NCBI GenBank assembly: GCA_945787955.1
Contig: CALZKF010000001.1
Location: 1 to 51,001, forward strand
Source: an uncultured Acidobacteriota bacterium
GTDB taxonomy: Bacteria; Acidobacteriota; Polarisedimenticolia; Polarisedimenticolales; Polarisedimenticolaceae
Length of the DNA: 51,001 nucleotides
Direction: 5' to 3'
Both the position numbers and the translations under genes were made by a program. The notes beneath the pieces are model-generated. The model searched no databases, had not been told where the DNA came from, and saw only the letters and a program-made list of their open reading frames with translations. Shown piece by piece: positions 30,281 to 38,437 of this stretch. Position 1 is the stretch's first letter. Each line of letters opens with the position of its first letter.

Positions 30281-31783
30281 TTAGTAGCGATAGTGCTCCG
30301 GCTTGTACGGTCCATCCACAGGTATGCCGAGATAGTCAGCCTGTTCGGAGGTCAGACGGGTCAGCTTCACGCCCAGGTGGGGGAGATGCAGCCGGGCGAC
30401 CTCCTCGTCCAGGTGCTTGGGAAGAACGTAAACCTGGTTCTCATACTTCCCGTGGTTGACGTGCAGTTCAATCTGGGCCATGACCTGGTTGGTAAACGAT
30501 GCGGACATAACGAAACTGGGGTGTCCCGTGGCGCAGCCCAGGTTCAGGAGCCGGCCTTCGGCCAGCATCATGACACTGTGACCGTCGGGGAACCGCCACT
30601 CATCGTACTGCGGCTTGACGTTGATGCATTCGATGCCCTTGATCTTCTTGAGACCGGCAATATCGATCTCGTTGTCGAAATGGCCGATGTTGCCGACAAT
30701 CGCCTTGTCCTTCATCCGGCTCATGTGGGCGGCGGTCAGGACATCCTTGTTACCGGTGGTTGTGATGAAGATGTCGGCGGTTTCCACCACGTTCTCAAGG
30801 GTGTTGACCTCGTACCCTTCCATGGCGGCCTGCAGCGCGCAGATCGGGTCGATCTCGGTGACCACGACCCTGGCGCCCTGGCCCCTGAGTGCCTGTGCGC
30901 AACCTTTGCCGACCTCTCCGTAGCCGCATACCACGGCGACCTTGCCGCCGATCATGACGTCACTGGCGCGGCAGATCCCGTCGGTGAGGGAGTGGCGGCA
31001 ACCGTAGATGTTGTCGAACTTGCTCTTGGTTACCGAATCGTTGACGTTGATGGCGGGGAACAGCAGCTTGCCTTCATTCGCCATCTGGTACAGGCGATGC
31101 ACACCGGTTGTGGTCTCTTCGCTGACGCCATAGATGCCGGCTGCGACCTTGTTCCAGCGTGTCGGGTTTTCCGCCATCTCCTCCCGGAGCAGATCGAGGG
31201 TCACGCCCCACTCTTCCGCATCGTTGTCCGGGTCGAAGTCAGGTACCTGGCCGGCGTCTTCAAACTCCTTGCCTTTGTGGACCAGCAGGGTGGCATCGCC
31301 GCCATCATCCACGATCAGGTCCGGGCCGGACCCGTCGGGCCACATCAACGCCTCGCTGGTGCACCACCAGTATTCCTTGAGGGTTTCCCCTTTCCAGGCG
31401 AACACCGGCACGCCCCGGGGATCTTCGGGGGTGCCGCCGGTTTCCGGTCGTCCCACGACCACTGCCGCAGCAGCGTGGTCCTGGGTTGAAAAGATATTGC
31501 AGGACACCCAGCGGATATCCGCTCCCAGGTCGGCCAGGGTTTCGATCAGTACGGCGGTTTGGATCGTCATGTGCAGGCTGCCCATGACCTTGACTCCGGC
31601 AAGCGGCTGTTTGCCTGCGTAGCGTTCGCGCAACACCATCAACCCGGGCATTTCGTGTTCCGCCAGCACCATCTCTCGGCGGCCAAAGGCCGCCTCGCCA
31701 AGATCCTTGACCTTGTAAAGTGGCCGGCCGGCCTTTGCGGCAGCCTTGAACGGGTGAACCTTCTCACCAGTTGCAGTCGTCAT
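30281..31783 (-). CDS. ahcY: Adenosylhomocysteinase
   Basis: [63 protein letters not shown]-term [24 protein letters not shown]. Confidence 0.98.
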
Positions 31784-31812
31784 CTCGTTTCCTCCAGTCC
31801 CCTTGGGATCCG

Positions 31813-32769
31813 TTATCCGGCATTTCTTGCCGTCATGGCGAACAATGCCGGTCCTTTTGCGTTTCGTTCCATCGGCAACAGGCTGTGCCGTACCGTTTCG
31901 AACCCTGCCTCTCCCGCCCGGCGAGTAATGTCCGATTCCGGGAAGCCCAGCCAGATGTGCCCCATGTTCGTTTCGAATTCAGCCCGCTCATGGGGCACCA
32001 TGTCAACGATCAGGATCCGTCCCCCCGGCTTCAGGACCCTGGCTGCCTCACATAGAGCCGCATCCGGATCCGCCAGGTGGTGCAACACGAGGATCATGAT
32101 CGCCGCATCCAGAGCGTGGTCCGGCAGAGGCAGTGTTTCAAGCGCCGCCTGGTGCAACCGGATGTTGTCCCGGATTGCCAGCCGCTTCTTCGCTGCGATC
32201 AACATCGCCTCGGAATCGTCTACCGCGTGCACCTGCCGGACAAAGGGAGCAACCACCTCCGCCATCAGTCCAGTGCCGCAGCCAAGGTCCCCCACCACCC
32301 AGGCCGGGTCCAGTAGACCGGGAAGCGCCATAAGACCGAAGCGGTCGCCGAACAGATCTTCCCGCAGGCGGTCCCACCCCGGCGCGTCCCGATCGAAGAA
32401 CTCCTGGGAACGGCTCCTGCGAGAGGCCATGACTTGCACGACCCGTCGAGCGTCTTCCTTCGATTCCTGCAACTCGGCGATTCGCTCCCTGAGGATCAAC
32501 CACAGGGAGGCGGCACTCTGATCCAAGTCGTCGGGGAACAGAACGTACAGACGCCTCGTTCCCTCTCGCCTCCCATGGATCCAGCCGGCCTCCGAGAGCA
32601 TTTTCAGGTGCCGACTCACCGTCGACTGGGGCAAGCCCAGGACTTCGCACAACTCACTCACCGACAGGTGCCTGCGCTCCAGCAACAGGAGGACTCGGCC
32701 CCGAATCGGGTCGGACAGGCTCGACATCCGGCGAAAAATCCCGGCTCCCGGCGCATGTCTTATGGTCAT
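31813..32769 (-). CDS. ArsR-family HTH regulator fused to SAM-dependent methyltransferase domain (SahR-like candidate)
   Basis: [58 protein letters not shown]; then [47 protein letters not shown]. Confidence 0.88.
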
Positions 32770-32789
32770 GGCGGAATCAACTCCATCCG

Positions 32790-32803
32790 TATATCCGGAT
32801 ATA
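32790..32803. promoter_or_regulatory. 14-bp perfect palindrome TATATCCGGATATA upstream of the ArsR-methyltransferase/ahcY operon, likely operator
   Basis: Exact self-complementarity; 20 nt upstream of the start codon; a GATATC lies a few bases further. Confidence 0.6.
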
Positions 32804-32914
32804 TTGTTTGATATCACCGTCCTCCTGTCAAGATCTACCGCGGAAAATTGATGGAAACCCTTGAAAAGCAAGTAATTAAAGGTGAAAGTGGGATATTCCC
32901 GATACGAGGTGCTC

Positions 32915-33703
32915 ATGTTCAAAGTCGGCTATTTCCAATTCCACCCCCGTTTCGGCGAACTTGAAACCAATCGGAAAACGGTGTTCAAGGCGCTGGAACC
33001 GGTGGAGGCTGATCTGATGGTCCTGCCGGAACTGCCGTTTACCGGGTACACCTTCCGGGACCGGAAAGAACTCGCAGCACTGGCCGAGGACCCGGCTAAT
33101 TCCGAATCGGTTGATCTCCTCACCAGCCTCTGCCGACGGAACCGCATATACGTCGTCACCGGATTCGCCGAAAGGAGCGGCACCAGGATATTCAATTCCT
33201 CCCTCCTGATCGGTCCGCGCGGGTTGCTACGTATCTACCGCAAAATCCACCTCTTCAATGATGAAAAGAGATATTTCGACCCCGGGGATCTTCCGCTCGA
33301 AATCAACACGATCCGTGGAGTCCGGGTCGGCATGATGATCTGCTTCGACTGGGTTTTTCCCGAGGTCGTACGCACGCTCACTTTGCAGGGCATGGAACTC
33401 CTCTGCCATCCATCCAACCTGGTACTCAACTACTGCCAGAAGAGCATGCTGACCCGTTGCCTGGAAAACGGAGTCTTCGCAGTGACCACAAACCGGTTCG
33501 GCCTGGAGAAGCGGCCGCATGCCAGCCTCAAGTTCACAGGCGGCAGCCAGGTGGTCGGGCCCCGGGGACAGTTGCTGGTCCGGGCGCCGTCCCAGCGCCG
33601 CCAACTCCAGATTGTGGAGATTGATCCGAAGGAATCGAGAAACAAGTCCCTCACCCCCAGGAACCATCTCCTGAGAGACCGGCGTCCGGAATTCTACCGG
33701 TGA
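32915..33703 (+). CDS. Carbon-nitrogen hydrolase (nitrilase superfamily)
   Basis: LMVLPELPFTGYTF (Glu), YRKIHLFNDEKRYF (Lys), VGMMICFDWVFPEVVRTL (Cys). Confidence 0.9.
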   Translation: MFKVGYFQFHPRFGELETNRKTVFKALEPVEADLMVLPELPFTGYTFRDRKELAALAEDPANSESVDLLTSLCRRNRIYVVTGFAERSGTRIFNSSLLIGPRGLLRIYRKIHLFNDEKRYFDPGDLPLEINTIRGVRVGMMICFDWVFPEVVRTLTLQGMELLCHPSNLVLNYCQKSMLTRCLENGVFAVTTNRFGLEKRPHASLKFTGGSQVVGPRGQLLVRAPSQRRQLQIVEIDPKESRNKSLTPRNHLLRDRRPEFYR

Positions 33704-33724
33704 GACCGTGGTAAAATCGAGGTG

Positions 33725-34534
33725 ATGGAATCAGAATCCGTTCCAGGAACCGGAATTGGTTTCCCGCACCTCCCGGAGTTCCGCCCGGACCAACCCCTGG
33801 TCGATGGGAAGTACTGCGTCAGGTTTGCCTCCACCCCGGATGAATATGAGGCGGCCCTGCGCCTTCGATTTGAGGTTTTCAACCTGGAGCTGGGGGAAGG
33901 TCTGGCTGATTCTTTCGATTCCGGCAAGGATCAGGACCTTTATGACCCGTACTTCCACCACCTGATCGTGCTCGATACGGAGACGGACCGGATTGTCGGC
34001 ACCTATCGGATGCAGACCTGCGAGATGGCGGAGAGAGGTGCAGGTTTCTACTCCAACGACGAGTTCACCCTGGACCGGCTCCCCCTGGACGTCAGGCGGG
34101 AGGCGGTGGAGATCGGCAGGGCTTCGGTGGCCCTCCCATACCGCAACCGGCAGGTGCTGTTCCTGCTCTGGAAAGGTCTGGCCCAGTACCTGTCGTTCAA
34201 CCGCAAGCGGTACTTCTTCGGCTGCTGTTCCATCACCAGCCAGGACGTCATGGAGGGCCTGGCGGTGCACCGGCACCTTGATGAGAGCGGTCTGATCCAT
34301 CCGGCATTTCGGGTCGAATGCCGGCCCGAGTACGCATGTCACCCCAAAAAGGGCGCACTCCCTTTCGAGGGTGCGGCCAAAATTCCCCCCTTGTTCAAGC
34401 TGTACCTGCGCTACGGCTCCCGGGTCGTCAGCCCTCCCGCCCTGGATCGGGAGTTCAAGACCATCGACTGGCTGGTGCTGTTTGACTTCGAAGAACTGGC
34501 GCCCCATTCGAGGAAACTGTTTTTCGGTTTCTGA
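33725..34534 (+). CDS. GNAT N-acyltransferase, OlsB / hemolysin-acyltransferase-like
   Basis: ALRLRFEVFNLE, DPYFHHLIVLD, RIVGTYRMQT, GFYSNDEFTL, AVEIGRASVALPYRNRQVLFLLWKGLAQYL, YFFGCCSI. Confidence 0.8.
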   Translation: MESESVPGTGIGFPHLPEFRPDQPLVDGKYCVRFASTPDEYEAALRLRFEVFNLELGEGLADSFDSGKDQDLYDPYFHHLIVLDTETDRIVGTYRMQTCEMAERGAGFYSNDEFTLDRLPLDVRREAVEIGRASVALPYRNRQVLFLLWKGLAQYLSFNRKRYFFGCCSITSQDVMEGLAVHRHLDESGLIHPAFRVECRPEYACHPKKGALPFEGAAKIPPLFKLYLRYGSRVVSPPALDREFKTIDWLVLFDFEELAPHSRKLFFGF

Positions 34535-34549
34535 ACCGGTGCTCTTTTG

Positions 34550-35311
34550 ATGAGATTAATCCGGGTCGCCTTCAAGATGACCGTGATCGTCTTCACGACG
34601 CCGGTGACCTGGCTGGTCATTACCTGCGGCCTGCCGTTCGTGCGCCTGTTGGGCGGCTCGGTTCCGCACTGGCGGGCTCGCATTTTCCATCTCTGGGCCC
34701 GGGTCATCGCTCGGGCATTGGGCATGCGGGTCACGGTGGAAGGAAAACCTCCGTCCAGCCCGTTCCTGCTGGTGGCCAACCACCTGAGCTACGTGGACGT
34801 CGTCCTTCTGGTCTCCCAGATGCCCTGCACCTTCGTTGCCCGGGCCGACCTCAAAGACTGGCCGCTGTTCGGCCCCATGGTTCCGGCCGGCGGCACCCTG
34901 TTTCTCAACCGGGACCGGAAGCGTGACATCCCCCGGGTGATCGAGCAGCTCAAGGTCCCGTACGAGGCCGGCGTCGGGGTGGTGATATTTCCCGAAGGCA
35001 CAAGCAGCAACGGTGAAACGGTCCCGCCATTCCGCTCCTCTCTCCTGGAGCCGGCGGCCCAGGGGCGGTTTCCTGTGTACCACGCCGTCATCCGCTACGA
35101 AACTCCTGCGGGACAGCCGTCTGCCAGACAATCGGTCTGCTGGTGGGGGAGTATGGAATTTCTGCCCCACCTGATCGGTTTGTTTGGTCTCCCTCGATTT
35201 GACGCCAGCCTGGTATTCGGGAGGGAGCCGATTGTCCGCGGGGATCGGAAACAACTCGCCACCGAACTTCGGGAGGCGGTAAAATCCCGGTTCCGGCCGG
35301 TGCCGGAATAG
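34550..35311 (+). CDS. 1-acyl-sn-glycerol-3-phosphate acyltransferase (PlsC/OlsA type)
   Basis: Acyltransferase block NHLSYVDVVLLVSQMP, VVIFPEGTSSNGETVPPFRSSLLEPA. Confidence 0.88.
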   Translation: MRLIRVAFKMTVIVFTTPVTWLVITCGLPFVRLLGGSVPHWRARIFHLWARVIARALGMRVTVEGKPPSSPFLLVANHLSYVDVVLLVSQMPCTFVARADLKDWPLFGPMVPAGGTLFLNRDRKRDIPRVIEQLKVPYEAGVGVVIFPEGTSSNGETVPPFRSSLLEPAAQGRFPVYHAVIRYETPAGQPSARQSVCWWGSMEFLPHLIGLFGLPRFDASLVFGREPIVRGDRKQLATELREAVKSRFRPVPE

Positions 35312-35319
35312 GAGCCTTC

Positions 35320-35862
35320 ATGGATCTGGTGAATCTGCCGGCAGGACCGAACATCGCCACCCTCCAACAGGGAGTCGATCTGATCCGCCGCTTGGAAGAC
35401 GAGCTGTATCAAGCCGAACCTGCCAAGCCTGTTTCCGGTGGCGTCGGCAACCAGTTCCGGCACGGCCTGGACTTCTACTTCTGCTTCCTCGACGGTCTCG
35501 AATCCGGGAAAATCGATTACGAATGCCGGCGGCGGGACAACCGCATCACGGAGGACCGGCTGTATGCGGTGGAGTGCATCGGGGACCTGATCGGGAAGCT
35601 GGCCCAACTGAGTGACGGTGATGCCGCGCGCCCGATCCGGACCCGGGGCGAAGCGCCTGCCGGGGCCGGCCATGAAACCGCCCCCTGGGCCGACTCATCG
35701 GTCCTGCGGGAGTTGCAGTTCCTGTCCAGCCACACGGTCCACCATTACGCCATCATCCGGCTGCTGCTGGCGGCGCAAGGGTTCGAGACCGGCAAGGACT
35801 TCGGCGTGGCCCCTTCCACCCTGAGATTCTGGGAGCAGCAGACAGGCAACCCCGCCGTCTGA
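35320..35862 (+). CDS. DinB-like four-helix-bundle protein
   Basis: HGLDFYFCFLDGL near N-term, SSHTVHHYAIIRLLLAAQG metal-ligand-type His cluster. Confidence 0.55.
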   Translation: MDLVNLPAGPNIATLQQGVDLIRRLEDELYQAEPAKPVSGGVGNQFRHGLDFYFCFLDGLESGKIDYECRRRDNRITEDRLYAVECIGDLIGKLAQLSDGDAARPIRTRGEAPAGAGHETAPWADSSVLRELQFLSSHTVHHYAIIRLLLAAQGFETGKDFGVAPSTLRFWEQQTGNPAV

Positions 35863-35875
35863 CCGGGAGACCCCC

Positions 35876-38437
35876 TTGGCCGGCAAAAGCAGAGTGCTGT
35901 GGCCGGCGGTCCTGATCTACACCGCGCTGCTGCTCGCCTCCCACACCGTGCGATGGGCCGCCGGGCCCGGGCTGCCTGAAACGGATCCGGAGCTCCGGAC
36001 TGTCGGCCTGGGCCAGGTGCAGCTGGCGTTCCATGACCTTCCCGGGTTTGGGACAGCGGGCCGGTTTCCGGTATTGCTGATCCACGGCAGCCCGGGAAGA
36101 GCCGCCGATTTCCGGAGCATGGCTGACGCCATGAGAGGCCAGCGCAGGATTCTGATCCCCGATCTTCCCGGGTTCGGCCGTTCAACGCGAAGCATCCCGG
36201 ACTATTCCATCCGGTCCCACGCCGATTACCTGCTGCAGCTCCTGGAAAAGGAGCACATCCAACAGGTCCACGTGGTCGGTTTCAGCATGGGCGGCGGGGT
36301 GGCCCTGAACCTTTACGACCTGGCGCCGGACCGGATCGCTTCGATCACCCTCCTGTCCGCCATCGGCGTCCAGGAACTGGAACTGTTCGGCAGCTATCGG
36401 CTCAACCGCATGGTCCACGGAGCACAACTCACCTTCATGAAACTGGTCCTGGAAGGCCTGCCTCATTTCGGTCTCCTGGACGGCGGTATTCTGGACATCC
36501 CATACGCCCGGAACTTCTACGATTCGGACCAGCGCCCGCTGCGCCGGATACTCACGGAACTGCAACCGCCGATGCTGATCATCCACGGCCGTGAGGACAT
36601 CCTGGTACCGTTCGCCGTGGCGGAAGAGCACCACCGCATCGTGCCGCACTCGGTGCTTCACGCCACACCGAAAAGTCATTTCATGGTGTTCAGCCAGGGG
36701 CCGATGCTGGCCGCGGCCATTGGCCGGTTCCTGGGGGAGGTTGAAGCGGGCCGGATGCCGCGACGGAACGATGCCGACCCGGCCAGAATCGCTCAGGCGC
36801 AACAGCCGCCCGACTCCACCGCTTCCCCGCCCGCCGCCGGGATCGGCCTCCTTGTCCTGATGCTGTTGATCGCCGTGGCAACCCTGGTCAGCGAGGACCT
36901 GACCTGCATCGTTACCGGCCTGATGGTGGCCCAGGGCAGGATCGACTTCCTTCCCGGCGCCCTGGCATGCTTCATCGGTATTTTCATCGGCGACGTGATT
37001 CTGTTCCTGGCCGGACGCTGGATCGGTCGCGCCGCGATCCATCGCGCTCCTCTGAGGTGGCTCCTCTCGCCGGAACGGGTGGAGCAGGGCTCAATCTGGT
37101 TCCGCCGCCGGGGGCCGGTTGTGATCGCCTTGAGCCGGTTCACACCAGGAACACGCCTCCCGACCTATTTTGCCGCCGGGATGTTCCGGACCGGATTCCT
37201 GAAGTTCTGCCTGTACTTCATCCTGGCCGCAGGCGCCTGGACGCCGATCCTGGTCGCCCTTGCGATGTTCACCGGGTCCGACGCGGTGGCCTGGCTGGGA
37301 CTTGCGGAAACCTACGGTCTCCCGGTACTGATCGCACTGGCAATCAGCCTGTTCATCATAATCCGTATGCTTGTTCCCCTTTTGACATGGCGGGGCAGGA
37401 AACGGATGAAGGGCCGCCTGACACGGATGCGGTACTGGGAGTTCTGGCCGCCCTGGGTGTTCTACCTGCCGATCGTCCTGCATATCATCTGGTTGGGGAT
37501 CAAACACCGCTGTCCGACCCTGTTCACCGCGGCGAATCCGGGTATACCGTCGGGAGGATTCATCGCCGAATCCAAGAGCGACATCCTGGACAGCCTCAAG
37601 GGCGCCGGGGATGTCATCGCAAGGCATACCAGAATCCCGGTTGCAGCAGGTCTTCAGAAGGCTCAGCAGTTCATGACGCGGGAACAGCTCGACTTTCCAG
37701 TCGTTCTGAAGCCGGATATCGGCCAGCGCGGCTCCGGCGTGAAGATCATCCACAGCACTGAGCAACTGGAATCCGGACTGTCCTCACTCCGGGAACCGAT
37801 GATCCTGCAGGAGTACGCCCCCGGACCCGAGTTCGGCGTGTTCTGGTACCGCCTCCCGGGAGAGCCTCAAGGGAAGATCTTCAGCATCACCGAGAAAGTC
37901 ATCCCTGAGGTAACCGGCGACGGCAAGCGAACCCTGGAGAAATTGATCCTGGACGACGAACGTGCCGTGGCCATGGCCGGGTTCTACCTTGAAGCCCACC
38001 CGGACGCATCCGACCGGGTCCCGAACGACGGAGAAAAGGTCGCCCTCGCAGAACTGGGCACTCATTGCCGTGGAGCGATGTTTCTGGACGGTATGTGGGT
38101 CAACGGCGAGAAGCTGGAAGCCGCCGTCGAAGGGATCAGTTCATCCTTCGAAGGTTTCTGGTTCGGGCGATACGACATCCGCGCAACGACCGCAGACGAC
38201 CTGACACACGGCAGGAACTTCAAGATCATCGAGCTGAACGGCGTGACTTCCGAAGCAACCCACATCTACGACCGCAAAACGTCTCTCTTCCAGGCCTGGA
38301 AGGTACTTGGCAGGCAGTGGGACATCGCATTCGAGATCGGAAAGCGGAATCGGGAGGCCGGCAGTGAGCCGACCGGCATCGGTGAACTGTTCAGGCTATC
38401 GCAGCGTTACCGGACCAAGGCAGCGCGGCGCAGCTGA
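35876..38437 (+). CDS. Triple-domain fusion: alpha/beta-hydrolase + DedA/VTT membrane domain + ATP-grasp ligase
   Basis: VLLIHGSPGRAADF, VVGFSMGGGVAL, HGREDILVPF (hydrolase); GIFIGDVILFLAGRWIGR, LSRFTPGTRLPTYFAAG (DedA); DFPVVLKPDIGQRGSGV, ELNGVTSE (ATP-grasp). TTG start assumed. Confidence 0.88.
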   Translation: MAGKSRVLWPAVLIYTALLLASHTVRWAAGPGLPETDPELRTVGLGQVQLAFHDLPGFGTAGRFPVLLIHGSPGRAADFRSMADAMRGQRRILIPDLPGFGRSTRSIPDYSIRSHADYLLQLLEKEHIQQVHVVGFSMGGGVALNLYDLAPDRIASITLLSAIGVQELELFGSYRLNRMVHGAQLTFMKLVLEGLPHFGLLDGGILDIPYARNFYDSDQRPLRRILTELQPPMLIIHGREDILVPFAVAEEHHRIVPHSVLHATPKSHFMVFSQGPMLAAAIGRFLGEVEAGRMPRRNDADPARIAQAQQPPDSTASPPAAGIGLLVLMLLIAVATLVSEDLTCIVTGLMVAQGRIDFLPGALACFIGIFIGDVILFLAGRWIGRAAIHRAPLRWLLSPERVEQGSIWFRRRGPVVIALSRFTPGTRLPTYFAAGMFRTGFLKFCLYFILAAGAWTPILVALAMFTGSDAVAWLGLAETYGLPVLIALAISLFIIIRMLVPLLTWRGRKRMKGRLTRMRYWEFWPPWVFYLPIVLHIIWLGIKHRCPTLFTAANPGIPSGGFIAESKSDILDSLKGAGDVIARHTRIPVAAGLQKAQQFMTREQLDFPVVLKPDIGQRGSGVKIIHSTEQLESGLSSLREPMILQEYAPGPEFGVFWYRLPGEPQGKIFSITEKVIPEVTGDGKRTLEKLILDDERAVAMAGFYLEAHPDASDRVPNDGEKVALAELGTHCRGAMFLDGMWVNGEKLEAAVEGISSSFEGFWFGRYDIRATTADDLTHGRNFKIIELNGVTSEATHIYDRKTSLFQAWKVLGRQWDIAFEIGKRNREAGSEPTGIGELFRLSQRYRTKAARRS

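What the first reader, a model, noticed from the sequence alone, without database searches (positions are those of the whole stretch)
32915..38437. Five-gene co-directional operon combining amidase, OlsB-like GNAT, PlsC, DinB-like and a hydrolase-DedA-ATP-grasp fusion
Intergenic gaps are only about 21, 15, 8 and 13 nt. OlsB (N-acyltransferase) plus OlsA/PlsC (O-acyltransferase) is the established ornithine-lipid pathway. Here they are linked to a nitrilase-fold amidase, a DinB-like protein and an enzyme with both lipid-scramblase-like (DedA) and ligase (ATP-grasp) domains. This predicts a new acylamino-acid/aminolipid whose head group is extended by ATP-dependent amide ligation and which is handled across the membrane. 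I did not recognise this combination as a described system.
Basis: partly seen in the sequence, partly recalled or inferred. Interest (0 to 1): 0.8.

Follow-up and report, generated by a model that had tools for sequence, protein, structure and literature searches.

The report
Conserved aminolipid head-group modification operon
Many unrelated bacteria share a gene group that probably builds an amino-acid membrane lipid, adds something to its head with ATP and moves it across the membrane; no such system was found in the papers we could search, and its product has not been seen.

Summary
The five-gene operon is real. The window lies in a relative of Ca. Polarisedimenticola (Acidobacteriota). 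Four of its five genes recur together far outside this genus: OlsB-like GNAT, OlsA-like PlsC, a metal-type DinB protein, and an alpha/beta-hydrolase–DedA–ATP-grasp fusion. At least 576 relatives of the ATP-grasp were found; the 80 loci kept span more than ten phyla. Across 396 Acidobacteriota genomes, all 35 carriers of this DinB are among the 54 carriers of this ATP-grasp, and 47 of those 54 carry the GNAT; at least two of the remaining seven carry an OlsF-like fusion instead. In Vibrio and Photobacterium the order is VTT–ATP-grasp–DinB–NRDE(TANGO2)–YHS–MauE/DoxX–OlsF. The amidase is confined to the genus. The fusion keeps all three active sites. Its hydrolase appears periplasmic and its ligase cytosolic. 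Best reading: an ornithine-lipid-type aminolipid is made, its head group is extended by ATP-dependent amide ligation, the DedA domain translocates it and the hydrolase trims it. This is the logic of MprF/LpiA–AcvB without tRNA and with unrelated enzymes. The module is secure (about 0.95). The chemistry is inferred (about 0.5). The head group is unknown. I found no description of the system.

The parts
32915..33703 (+). Carbon-nitrogen hydrolase (nitrilase-fold amidase); accessory gene found in this genus only. Upstream GTG at 32882 is also possible.
   Evidence: PF00795 140 bits. Glu-Lys-Cys motifs LPELPF, YRKIHLF and MICFDW read directly in the sequence. Next to the cluster only in the window and in L037/L052, which are one genome.
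33722..34534 (+). OlsB-like GNAT N-acyltransferase (predicted lyso-aminolipid synthase)
   Evidence: PF13444 93 bits; best NCBIfam hit OlsB 124.6 bits, cut-off 350; in 47 of 54 ATP-grasp genomes; alignment A2.
34547..35311 (+). OlsA/PlsC-like O-acyltransferase (predicted second acyl chain)
   Evidence: PF01553 70.9 bits; best NCBIfam hit OlsA 133.3 bits, cut-off 300; 38 of 100 surveyed loci.
35320..35862 (+). DinB-fold protein with an intact putative metal site (H48, H138, H142) and invariant Y67-x-x-R70-x-R72, R130-E131
   Evidence: Alignment A3/A6; AlphaFold pLDDT 93.3; Foldseek best match 3dka DinB-like, TM 0.59/0.72; 35/35 genomes with it also have the ATP-grasp.
35876..36805 (+). Fusion residues 1-310: N-terminal TM anchor plus alpha/beta hydrolase, predicted periplasmic; triad S137-D241-H268
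   Evidence: PF00561 94.5 bits; triad conserved in 51, 53 and 54 of 55 aligned fusion proteins; N-terminal hydrophobic helix in 39 of 51, with positive-inside bias 29:4.
36806..37405 (+). Fusion residues 311-510: VTT/DedA domain, predicted lipid translocase or scramblase
   Evidence: PF09335 57.2 bits, cut-off 33.9; E340, R421 and R427 conserved in 55, 54 and 55 of 55, matching E39, R130 and R136 needed in YqjA/YghB (PMC6849406); last TM followed by a basic, cytosolic segment.
37406..38434 (+). Fusion residues 511-853: ATP-grasp ligase with a membrane-interface helix (about residues 531-543) and the near-invariant motif NP..(A/G)G...E.K
   Evidence: PF08443 23.5 bits, cut-off 21; K567, K612, E652, D767, E786 and N788 invariant in 55 fusion proteins; nearest solved structures are cyanophycin synthetase and GshAB.

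Best explanation
The operon is an aminolipid biosynthesis and head-group tailoring module. Step 1: the GNAT N-acylates an amino acid, probably ornithine, with a 3-hydroxyacyl chain. Step 2: the PlsC protein adds the second acyl chain. Step 3: the ATP-grasp domain, held at the cytosolic membrane face, activates the lipid's free carboxylate with ATP and couples an amine or amino acid to it by an amide bond. Step 4: the fused DedA/VTT domain moves the product across the inner membrane. Step 5: the periplasmic alpha/beta-hydrolase domain of the same polypeptide removes or trims the head group. The DinB protein is a metal enzyme or thiol/metal accessory for the same lipid. NRDE/TANGO2, present in about half of the surveyed loci, probably handles or hydrolyses acyl groups. 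The amidase is a local addition with a similar trimming role. Shown here: gene content, co-conservation, intact active sites and likely topology. Inferred: every reaction step, the substrate and the direction of transport.
For: Co-conservation with several independent rearrangements: GNAT-PlsC-DinB-fusion across Acidobacteriota and other phyla. 35/35 DinB carriers and 47/54 ATP-grasp carriers overlap as predicted, Fisher p about 1e-36 and 1e-33 (genomes are related, so these p values are not independent tests); two of the 7 carriers without this GNAT have OlsF-like PlsC-GNAT fusions. The reverse does not hold: 28 of 342 genomes without the ATP-grasp have the GNAT, so the ligase fits as an add-on to an older aminolipid pathway. 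In genome G037 the GNAT-DinB pair and the NRDE-fusion pair lie far apart, yet all parts are kept. In Vibrio and Photobacterium the series ends in OlsF; a V. cholerae member of that enzyme family (VCA0646) makes ornithine lipid (PMC12186959). Ligase, DedA and hydrolase active sites are conserved within one polypeptide, and topology places the ligase inside and the hydrolase outside. Nearest solved ATP-grasps make amide bonds between amino-acid units.
Against: No lipid product is known. Two ATP-grasp genomes (G018, near complete, and G252) have no PF13444 protein at all, and three more have only weak, unlike ones. In Azospirillum, Paracoccus and Komagataeibacter the ATP-grasp has no GNAT beside it. 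The GNAT and PlsC are well below the OlsB/OlsA equivalog cut-offs, so ornithine is not established. Which carboxylate is activated, and with which amine, is unknown. The DinB role is a guess.
Confidence: 0.5

Rival explanations
1. The ATP-grasp works before the GNAT: it makes a small dipeptide or amide head group from soluble amino acids, which the GNAT then acylates; the VTT and hydrolase domains only handle the finished lipid.
For: Cyanophycin synthetase-, GshAB- and RimK-like ATP-grasps use soluble or peptide acceptors.
Against: The ligase is fused to a membrane translocase and carries a conserved hydrophobic interface helix, which a soluble reaction would not need. GNAT occurs without the ligase in 28 genomes, so the GNAT does not need its product.
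Confidence: 0.15
2. The ATP-grasp activates a fatty acid and makes an N-acyl amide itself, as proposed for acyl-histidine in Legionella; it is a second acylation route beside the GNAT.
For: ATP-grasp acyl-amide synthesis has been proposed (PMC11631085). Genomes G018 and G252 have the ligase with no PF13444 GNAT.
Against: The GNAT and PlsC beside it already make the acyl amide. Nearest structures are amino-acid ligases, not acyl-activating enzymes.
Confidence: 0.13
3. The VTT-ATP-grasp unit serves another envelope carrier, for example undecaprenyl phosphate recycling with amino-acid decoration as in UptA-type DedA proteins, and the aminolipid genes are only co-regulated.
For: An undecaprenyl-phosphate transporter UptA model matches the VTT domain at 62 bits. 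Some loci have VTT-ATP-grasp with no aminolipid genes nearby.
Against: UptA cut-off is 250 bits (not met). DinB is never found without the ligase in 396 genomes, and GNAT tracks the ligase genome-wide even when it lies at another locus.
Confidence: 0.12
4. The hydrolase domain is the O-acyltransferase of the pathway, like the alpha/beta-hydrolase OlsI of planctomycetes, rather than a trimming enzyme.
For: OlsI is an alpha/beta-hydrolase-fold O-acyltransferase for ornithine lipid (PMC12493201). Four GNAT loci with the fused hydrolase lack PlsC.
Against: PlsC is present in 22 of 26 full-length GNAT loci with the fused hydrolase and in only 7 of 16 without it, the opposite of replacement. The domain appears to lie outside the membrane, away from acyl-ACP.
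Confidence: 0.06
5. Chance neighbourhood of unrelated housekeeping genes.
For: None beyond the mixed annotation.
Against: Recurrence across more than ten phyla with different local gene orders, and the genome-wide co-occurrence.
Confidence: 0.02

Closest known systems
OlsBA and OlsF ornithine-lipid pathways
   Same: GNAT N-acyltransferase plus PlsC O-acyltransferase, here as separate genes; OlsF fusion in Vibrio and Photobacterium relatives.
   Different: Sequence scores far below the OlsB and OlsA cut-offs. Known head-group changes (hydroxylation, methylation, taurine transfer) were not linked in the papers searched to an ATP-grasp, DedA or DinB gene.
MprF / LpiA with AcvB (aminoacyl-phosphatidylglycerol synthesis, translocation and turnover)
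   Same: A lipid head-group synthase fused to a translocase, with a periplasmic alpha/beta-hydrolase that removes the head group (PMC11980842, PMC13197417).
   Different: Ligase is an ATP-grasp rather than an aminoacyl-tRNA transferase; translocase is DedA/VTT; hydrolase is fused; predicted substrate is an acyloxyacyl aminolipid. Works alike, not a member.
Ornithine-taurine lipid (cerilipin) of Gluconobacter cerinus
   Same: A known lipid whose ornithine carries a second unit (taurine); the head group is known (PMC4484230, PMC12493201) and is the kind of product predicted here.
   Different: No gene for that step is named in the papers read. Komagataeibacter, of the same family (Acetobacteraceae), carries a diverged ATP-grasp on plasmids with no aminolipid genes beside it, so a link is not shown.
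OlsH/OlsI ornithine-lipid pathway of planctomycetes
   Same: Uses an ATP-dependent amide synthetase and an alpha/beta-hydrolase-fold protein (PMC12493201).
   Different: OlsH is a GH3 adenylating enzyme that makes the N-acyl bond, not an ATP-grasp acting on a finished lipid.
Cyanophycin synthetase ATP-grasp
   Same: Best fold and profile match of the ligase domain.
   Different: No polymerising partner domains; fused to membrane domains.

Membership tests
OlsBA ornithine-lipid pathway | PF13444 N-acyltransferase next to a PlsC O-acyltransferase | tested here: met
OlsBA ornithine-lipid pathway | NCBIfam OlsB and OlsA equivalog cut-offs | tested here: not met
   124.6 against 350 and 133.3 against 300. 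Not filed as OlsB/OlsA; called OlsB-like and OlsA-like.
OlsBA ornithine-lipid pathway | Product is ornithine lipid | not testable with these tools
   Needs lipid analysis.
DedA/VTT family | VTT domain over the curated cut-off | tested here: met
   57.2 against 33.9 bits.
DedA/VTT family | Membrane-embedded E39, D51, R130 and R136 (YqjA/YghB numbering) | tested here: inconclusive
   E340, R421 and R427 near-invariant with the SRF.PG.R spacing of 6; no acid 12 residues after E340 (V352), D373 is conserved instead. Matched by motif and spacing, not by structure.
ATP-grasp ligases | Curated ATP-grasp profile hit and conserved ATP/Mg residues | tested here: met
   PF08443 23.5 against 21; K612, E652, D767, E786, N788 invariant.
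Cyanophycin synthetase | Equivalog cut-off | tested here: not met
   30.3 against 850 bits.
MprF / LPG synthase | LPG synthase transferase and flippase domains | tested here: not met
   Absent from the Pfam hits of the fusion. Analogy of logic only.
DinB superfamily | DinB fold and His metal site | tested here: met
   Below the Pfam cut-off by sequence, but the fold matches 3dka, 2f22 and 3gor and three histidines are invariant. Metal binding itself not tested.
TANGO2/NRDE (partner in relatives, not in the window) | TANGO2 profile and NRDE motif with N-terminal Cys | tested here: met
   PF05742 36.5 against 22.6; PDB 8sv7 and 9bwa at 1e-25; M1-C2, R19-D20-E21 invariant.
Nitrilase superfamily (gene 1) | PF00795 and Glu-Lys-Cys triad | tested here: met
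   140 against 23.2 bits; triad motifs read in the sequence.

The most novel reading that the evidence does not exclude
A widespread, undescribed counterpart of MprF that uses ATP-grasp chemistry instead of aminoacyl-tRNA to extend the head group of ornithine-type lipids and moves the product with a fused DedA domain, with a bacterial TANGO2 homologue as a regular part of the pathway. That would give a first genetic context in which the disputed function of TANGO2 could be tested in bacteria.
Probability: 0.4. Interest if true: 0.85.

Novelty: new variant of a known kind. Interest (0 to 1): 0.68.

Why it matters
If true, a new class of bacterial membrane lipid with an extended head group is made across more than ten phyla, many of them uncultured soil, sediment and marine lineages. 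It would supply a gene-level route to head groups such as ornithine-taurine, for which the papers read name no enzyme. It would also give a DedA protein a concrete predicted lipid substrate. NRDE/TANGO2 homologues sit in about half of the surveyed loci; human TANGO2 disease has an unresolved mechanism, with acyl-CoA binding recently reported (PMC11867700). A short operon in cultured Vibrio and Photobacterium makes the idea directly testable.

Tried and rejected
(1) Amidase as a core part: rejected, only in this genus. (2) NRDE and the fused hydrolase as strict alternatives: raw counts suggest it (full loci: hydrolase without NRDE 29, NRDE without hydrolase 20, both 10, neither 6), but the tree-corrected test had too few independent pairs, and other pairs were equally underpowered. 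(3) Amidase as a replacement for NRDE: not supported, since the same-genus genome G001 has both, unlinked. (4) Hydrolase as an OlsI-like O-acyltransferase: counts go the other way. (5) Literature for the combination: no description found; the library lacks most subscription journals. (6) Identity of V. cholerae VCA0647-0649: no record held in the collections searched. (7) Link of Komagataeibacter ATP-grasp to ornithine-taurine lipid: its neighbours hold no aminolipid genes.
Full report
Observation. The window holds five co-directional genes at 32915-38437: a nitrilase-fold amidase, an OlsB-like GNAT, an OlsA-like PlsC, a DinB-like protein, and an 853-residue fusion of alpha/beta hydrolase (1-310), DedA/VTT (311-510) and ATP-grasp (511-853). 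Gaps are 18, 12, 8 and 13 nt, or 21, 15, 8 and 13 with ATG starts. Domain assignments were confirmed with Pfam and NCBIfam. The GNAT and PlsC resemble OlsB and OlsA most but fall well below their equivalog cut-offs. The window is contig C1 of a 3.8 Mb, 87% complete genome; its nearest named relative is Ca. Polarisedimenticola svalbardensis, 80% identical in the ATP-grasp domain.

Conservation of the set. A search of 60 related genomes found the full fusion in 13 including the window genus, plus partial forms. Wider flanks show GNAT-PlsC-DinB directly upstream of it in most. A scan of one genome per species returned at least 576 relatives of the ATP-grasp; the best 80 span Acidobacteriota, Planctomycetota, Verrucomicrobiota, Bacteroidota (with Balneolaceae and Rhodothermia), Calditrichota, KSB1, Gemmatimonadota, Desulfobacterota, Spirochaetes and Leptospiraceae, Lentisphaerae, Chloroflexi (Anaerolineae) and Acidimicrobiia, including the isolates Cerasicoccus frondis and C. 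maritimus. Among 100 loci, VTT is found in 91, DinB in 63, alpha/beta hydrolase in 59, GNAT in 53, NRDE/TANGO2 in 49, PlsC in 38, MauE/DoxX-like in 27 and YHS in 9; many loci are cut by contig ends. The amidase occurs beside the cluster only in this genus.

Genome-wide test. In 396 Acidobacteriota genomes, 54 have this ATP-grasp, 75 the GNAT and 35 the DinB. All 35 DinB genomes are among the 54 ATP-grasp genomes; 30 have both within 8 kb. The GNAT is in 47 of the 54 and in 28 of the other 342; 39 of the 47 lie within 8 kb. Fisher p is about 1e-36 and 1e-33; genomes are related, so these p values overstate independence, but the hits span many genera. Of the seven without this GNAT, G007 and G061 carry OlsF-like PlsC-GNAT fusions (655 and 612 aa), G018 and G252 carry no PF13444 protein, and the other three carry only weak or unlike ones. 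NRDE is broader (80 genomes), enriched with the ATP-grasp (29 of 54, p about 2e-9) and within 8 kb in 19; away from the ATP-grasp it sits beside the OlsF-like gene in G007 and beside the GNAT in G144 and G175.

Independent architectures. In Vibrio sp. THAF191d and Photobacterium sp. GJ3 the parts are separate genes in one order: VTT, ATP-grasp, DinB, NRDE, YHS, MauE/DoxX-like, OlsF-like. Salinivibrio has VTT, ATP-grasp, DinB, NRDE. Variovorax has ATP-grasp and GNAT. Azospirillum has a VTT-ATP-grasp fusion alone, and Paracoccus has ATP-grasp, hydrolase and VTT. In G037 GNAT-DinB and NRDE-fusion lie far apart in one contig. Splitting, fusion and replacement of parts, while the set is kept, is what a shared pathway predicts.

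Active sites and topology. In 55 aligned fusion proteins the hydrolase triad S137, D241, H268 is kept in 51, 53 and 54; the VTT charges E340, R421 and R427 in 55, 54 and 55; and the ATP-grasp residues K567, K612, E652, D767, E786 and N788 in all 55. E340, R421 and R427 fit E39, R130 and R136, which are needed in E. coli DedA proteins (PMC6849406); the fourth, D51, has no acid at the same spacing. An N-terminal hydrophobic helix precedes the hydrolase in 39 of 51 proteins, with more basic residues before it than after in 29 and the reverse in 4, which puts the hydrolase outside; the last VTT helix is followed by a basic stretch, which puts the ligase inside. The VTT-ATP-grasp model has mean pLDDT 85 and a short helix at the ligase start, too short to span a membrane. 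Its best PDB matches are cyanophycin synthetase and GshAB, then D-Ala-D-Ala ligases, in agreement with the profile search. DinB folds with pLDDT 93 and matches DinB-like metal proteins, weakly (best E 1.1e-3).

Mechanism. The simplest account is a five-step aminolipid pathway: N-acylation, O-acylation, ATP-dependent extension of the head group at the cytosolic face, translocation by DedA, and trimming outside by the hydrolase. That the ligase is an add-on to an older aminolipid pathway fits the asymmetry: GNAT without ligase is common, ligase without GNAT or OlsF rare. That the substrate is a lipid fits the fusion to a translocase and the conserved interface helix. The amine that is added is unknown. 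DinB is unassigned: a metal- or thiol-dependent step is a guess from its fold.

Comparison. MprF and LpiA with AcvB show the same logic on phosphatidylglycerol: cytosolic synthase, fused translocase, periplasmic alpha/beta-hydrolase (PMC11980842, PMC13197417). None of their defining domains is present, so this is analogy, not membership. Ornithine lipids with hydroxylated, methylated or taurine-bearing head groups are known (PMC12493201, PMC4484230). A V. cholerae OlsF, VCA0646, makes ornithine lipid at low salinity, lowers polymyxin susceptibility and is the last of a four-gene operon (PMC12186959); overexpression of vca0646 with vca0647 causes T6SS-independent cell death (PMC11573629). Whether VCA0647-0649 are the MauE/DoxX, YHS and NRDE genes seen before OlsF in Vibrio sp. 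THAF191d was not tested. Human TANGO2 binds acyl-CoA through its NRDE motif (PMC11867700).

Verdict. The operon and its wide conservation are established. The system was not found in the literature that could be searched. Its product and the reactions of the ATP-grasp, VTT, hydrolase and DinB parts are predictions.

Noticed in passing
L036:7310-13037 (Vibrio sp. THAF191d) and L173:5369-11163 (Photobacterium sp. GJ3): Same seven-gene order VTT-ATP-grasp-DinB-NRDE-YHS-MauE/DoxX-OlsF in two genera. V. cholerae VCA0649-0646 also ends in OlsF, is HapR-controlled and causes cell death when overexpressed; identity of its first three genes not checked.
   Followed up: partly
L170:7929-9014 and L171:7998-9077 (Komagataeibacter plasmids typed as conjugative): A diverged member of the ATP-grasp family sits next to a methyltransferase, an iron-containing redox enzyme and ABC transporter genes; the same family (Acetobacteraceae) includes the ornithine-taurine lipid producer Gluconobacter cerinus.
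   Followed up: partly
L036:10319-10795; L126:1349-1933; other YHS loci: YHS domain (seleno)protein and MauE/DoxX-like membrane protein recur beside the module; a redox role is possible but unexplained.
   Followed up: no
G000:C68:855-1136 (L133:798-1544): Second PF13444 protein in the window's genome, unlike the operon's GNAT, possibly an exosortase-type N-acyl amino acid synthase.
   Followed up: no
window 30281-32922, minus strand: ArsR-type HTH fused to a SAM methyltransferase, divergent from the operon, followed by S-adenosylhomocysteinase; same arrangement in L037. The TTG start of the former overlaps the amidase start.
   Followed up: no
L104:4479-6398 and 18 other loci: Ferric-reductase/Rieske-type membrane proteins fall within 7 kb of the ATP-grasp in 19 loci by single-linkage clustering; positions vary, so this may be chance.
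   Followed up: no
L115: Two ATP-grasp copies in opposite orientation about 5 kb apart.
   Followed up: no
Acidobacteriota family f18 (for example G085, G126, G352): OlsB-like GNAT present without the ATP-grasp or DinB; likely plain aminolipid producers and a natural comparison group.
   Followed up: partly
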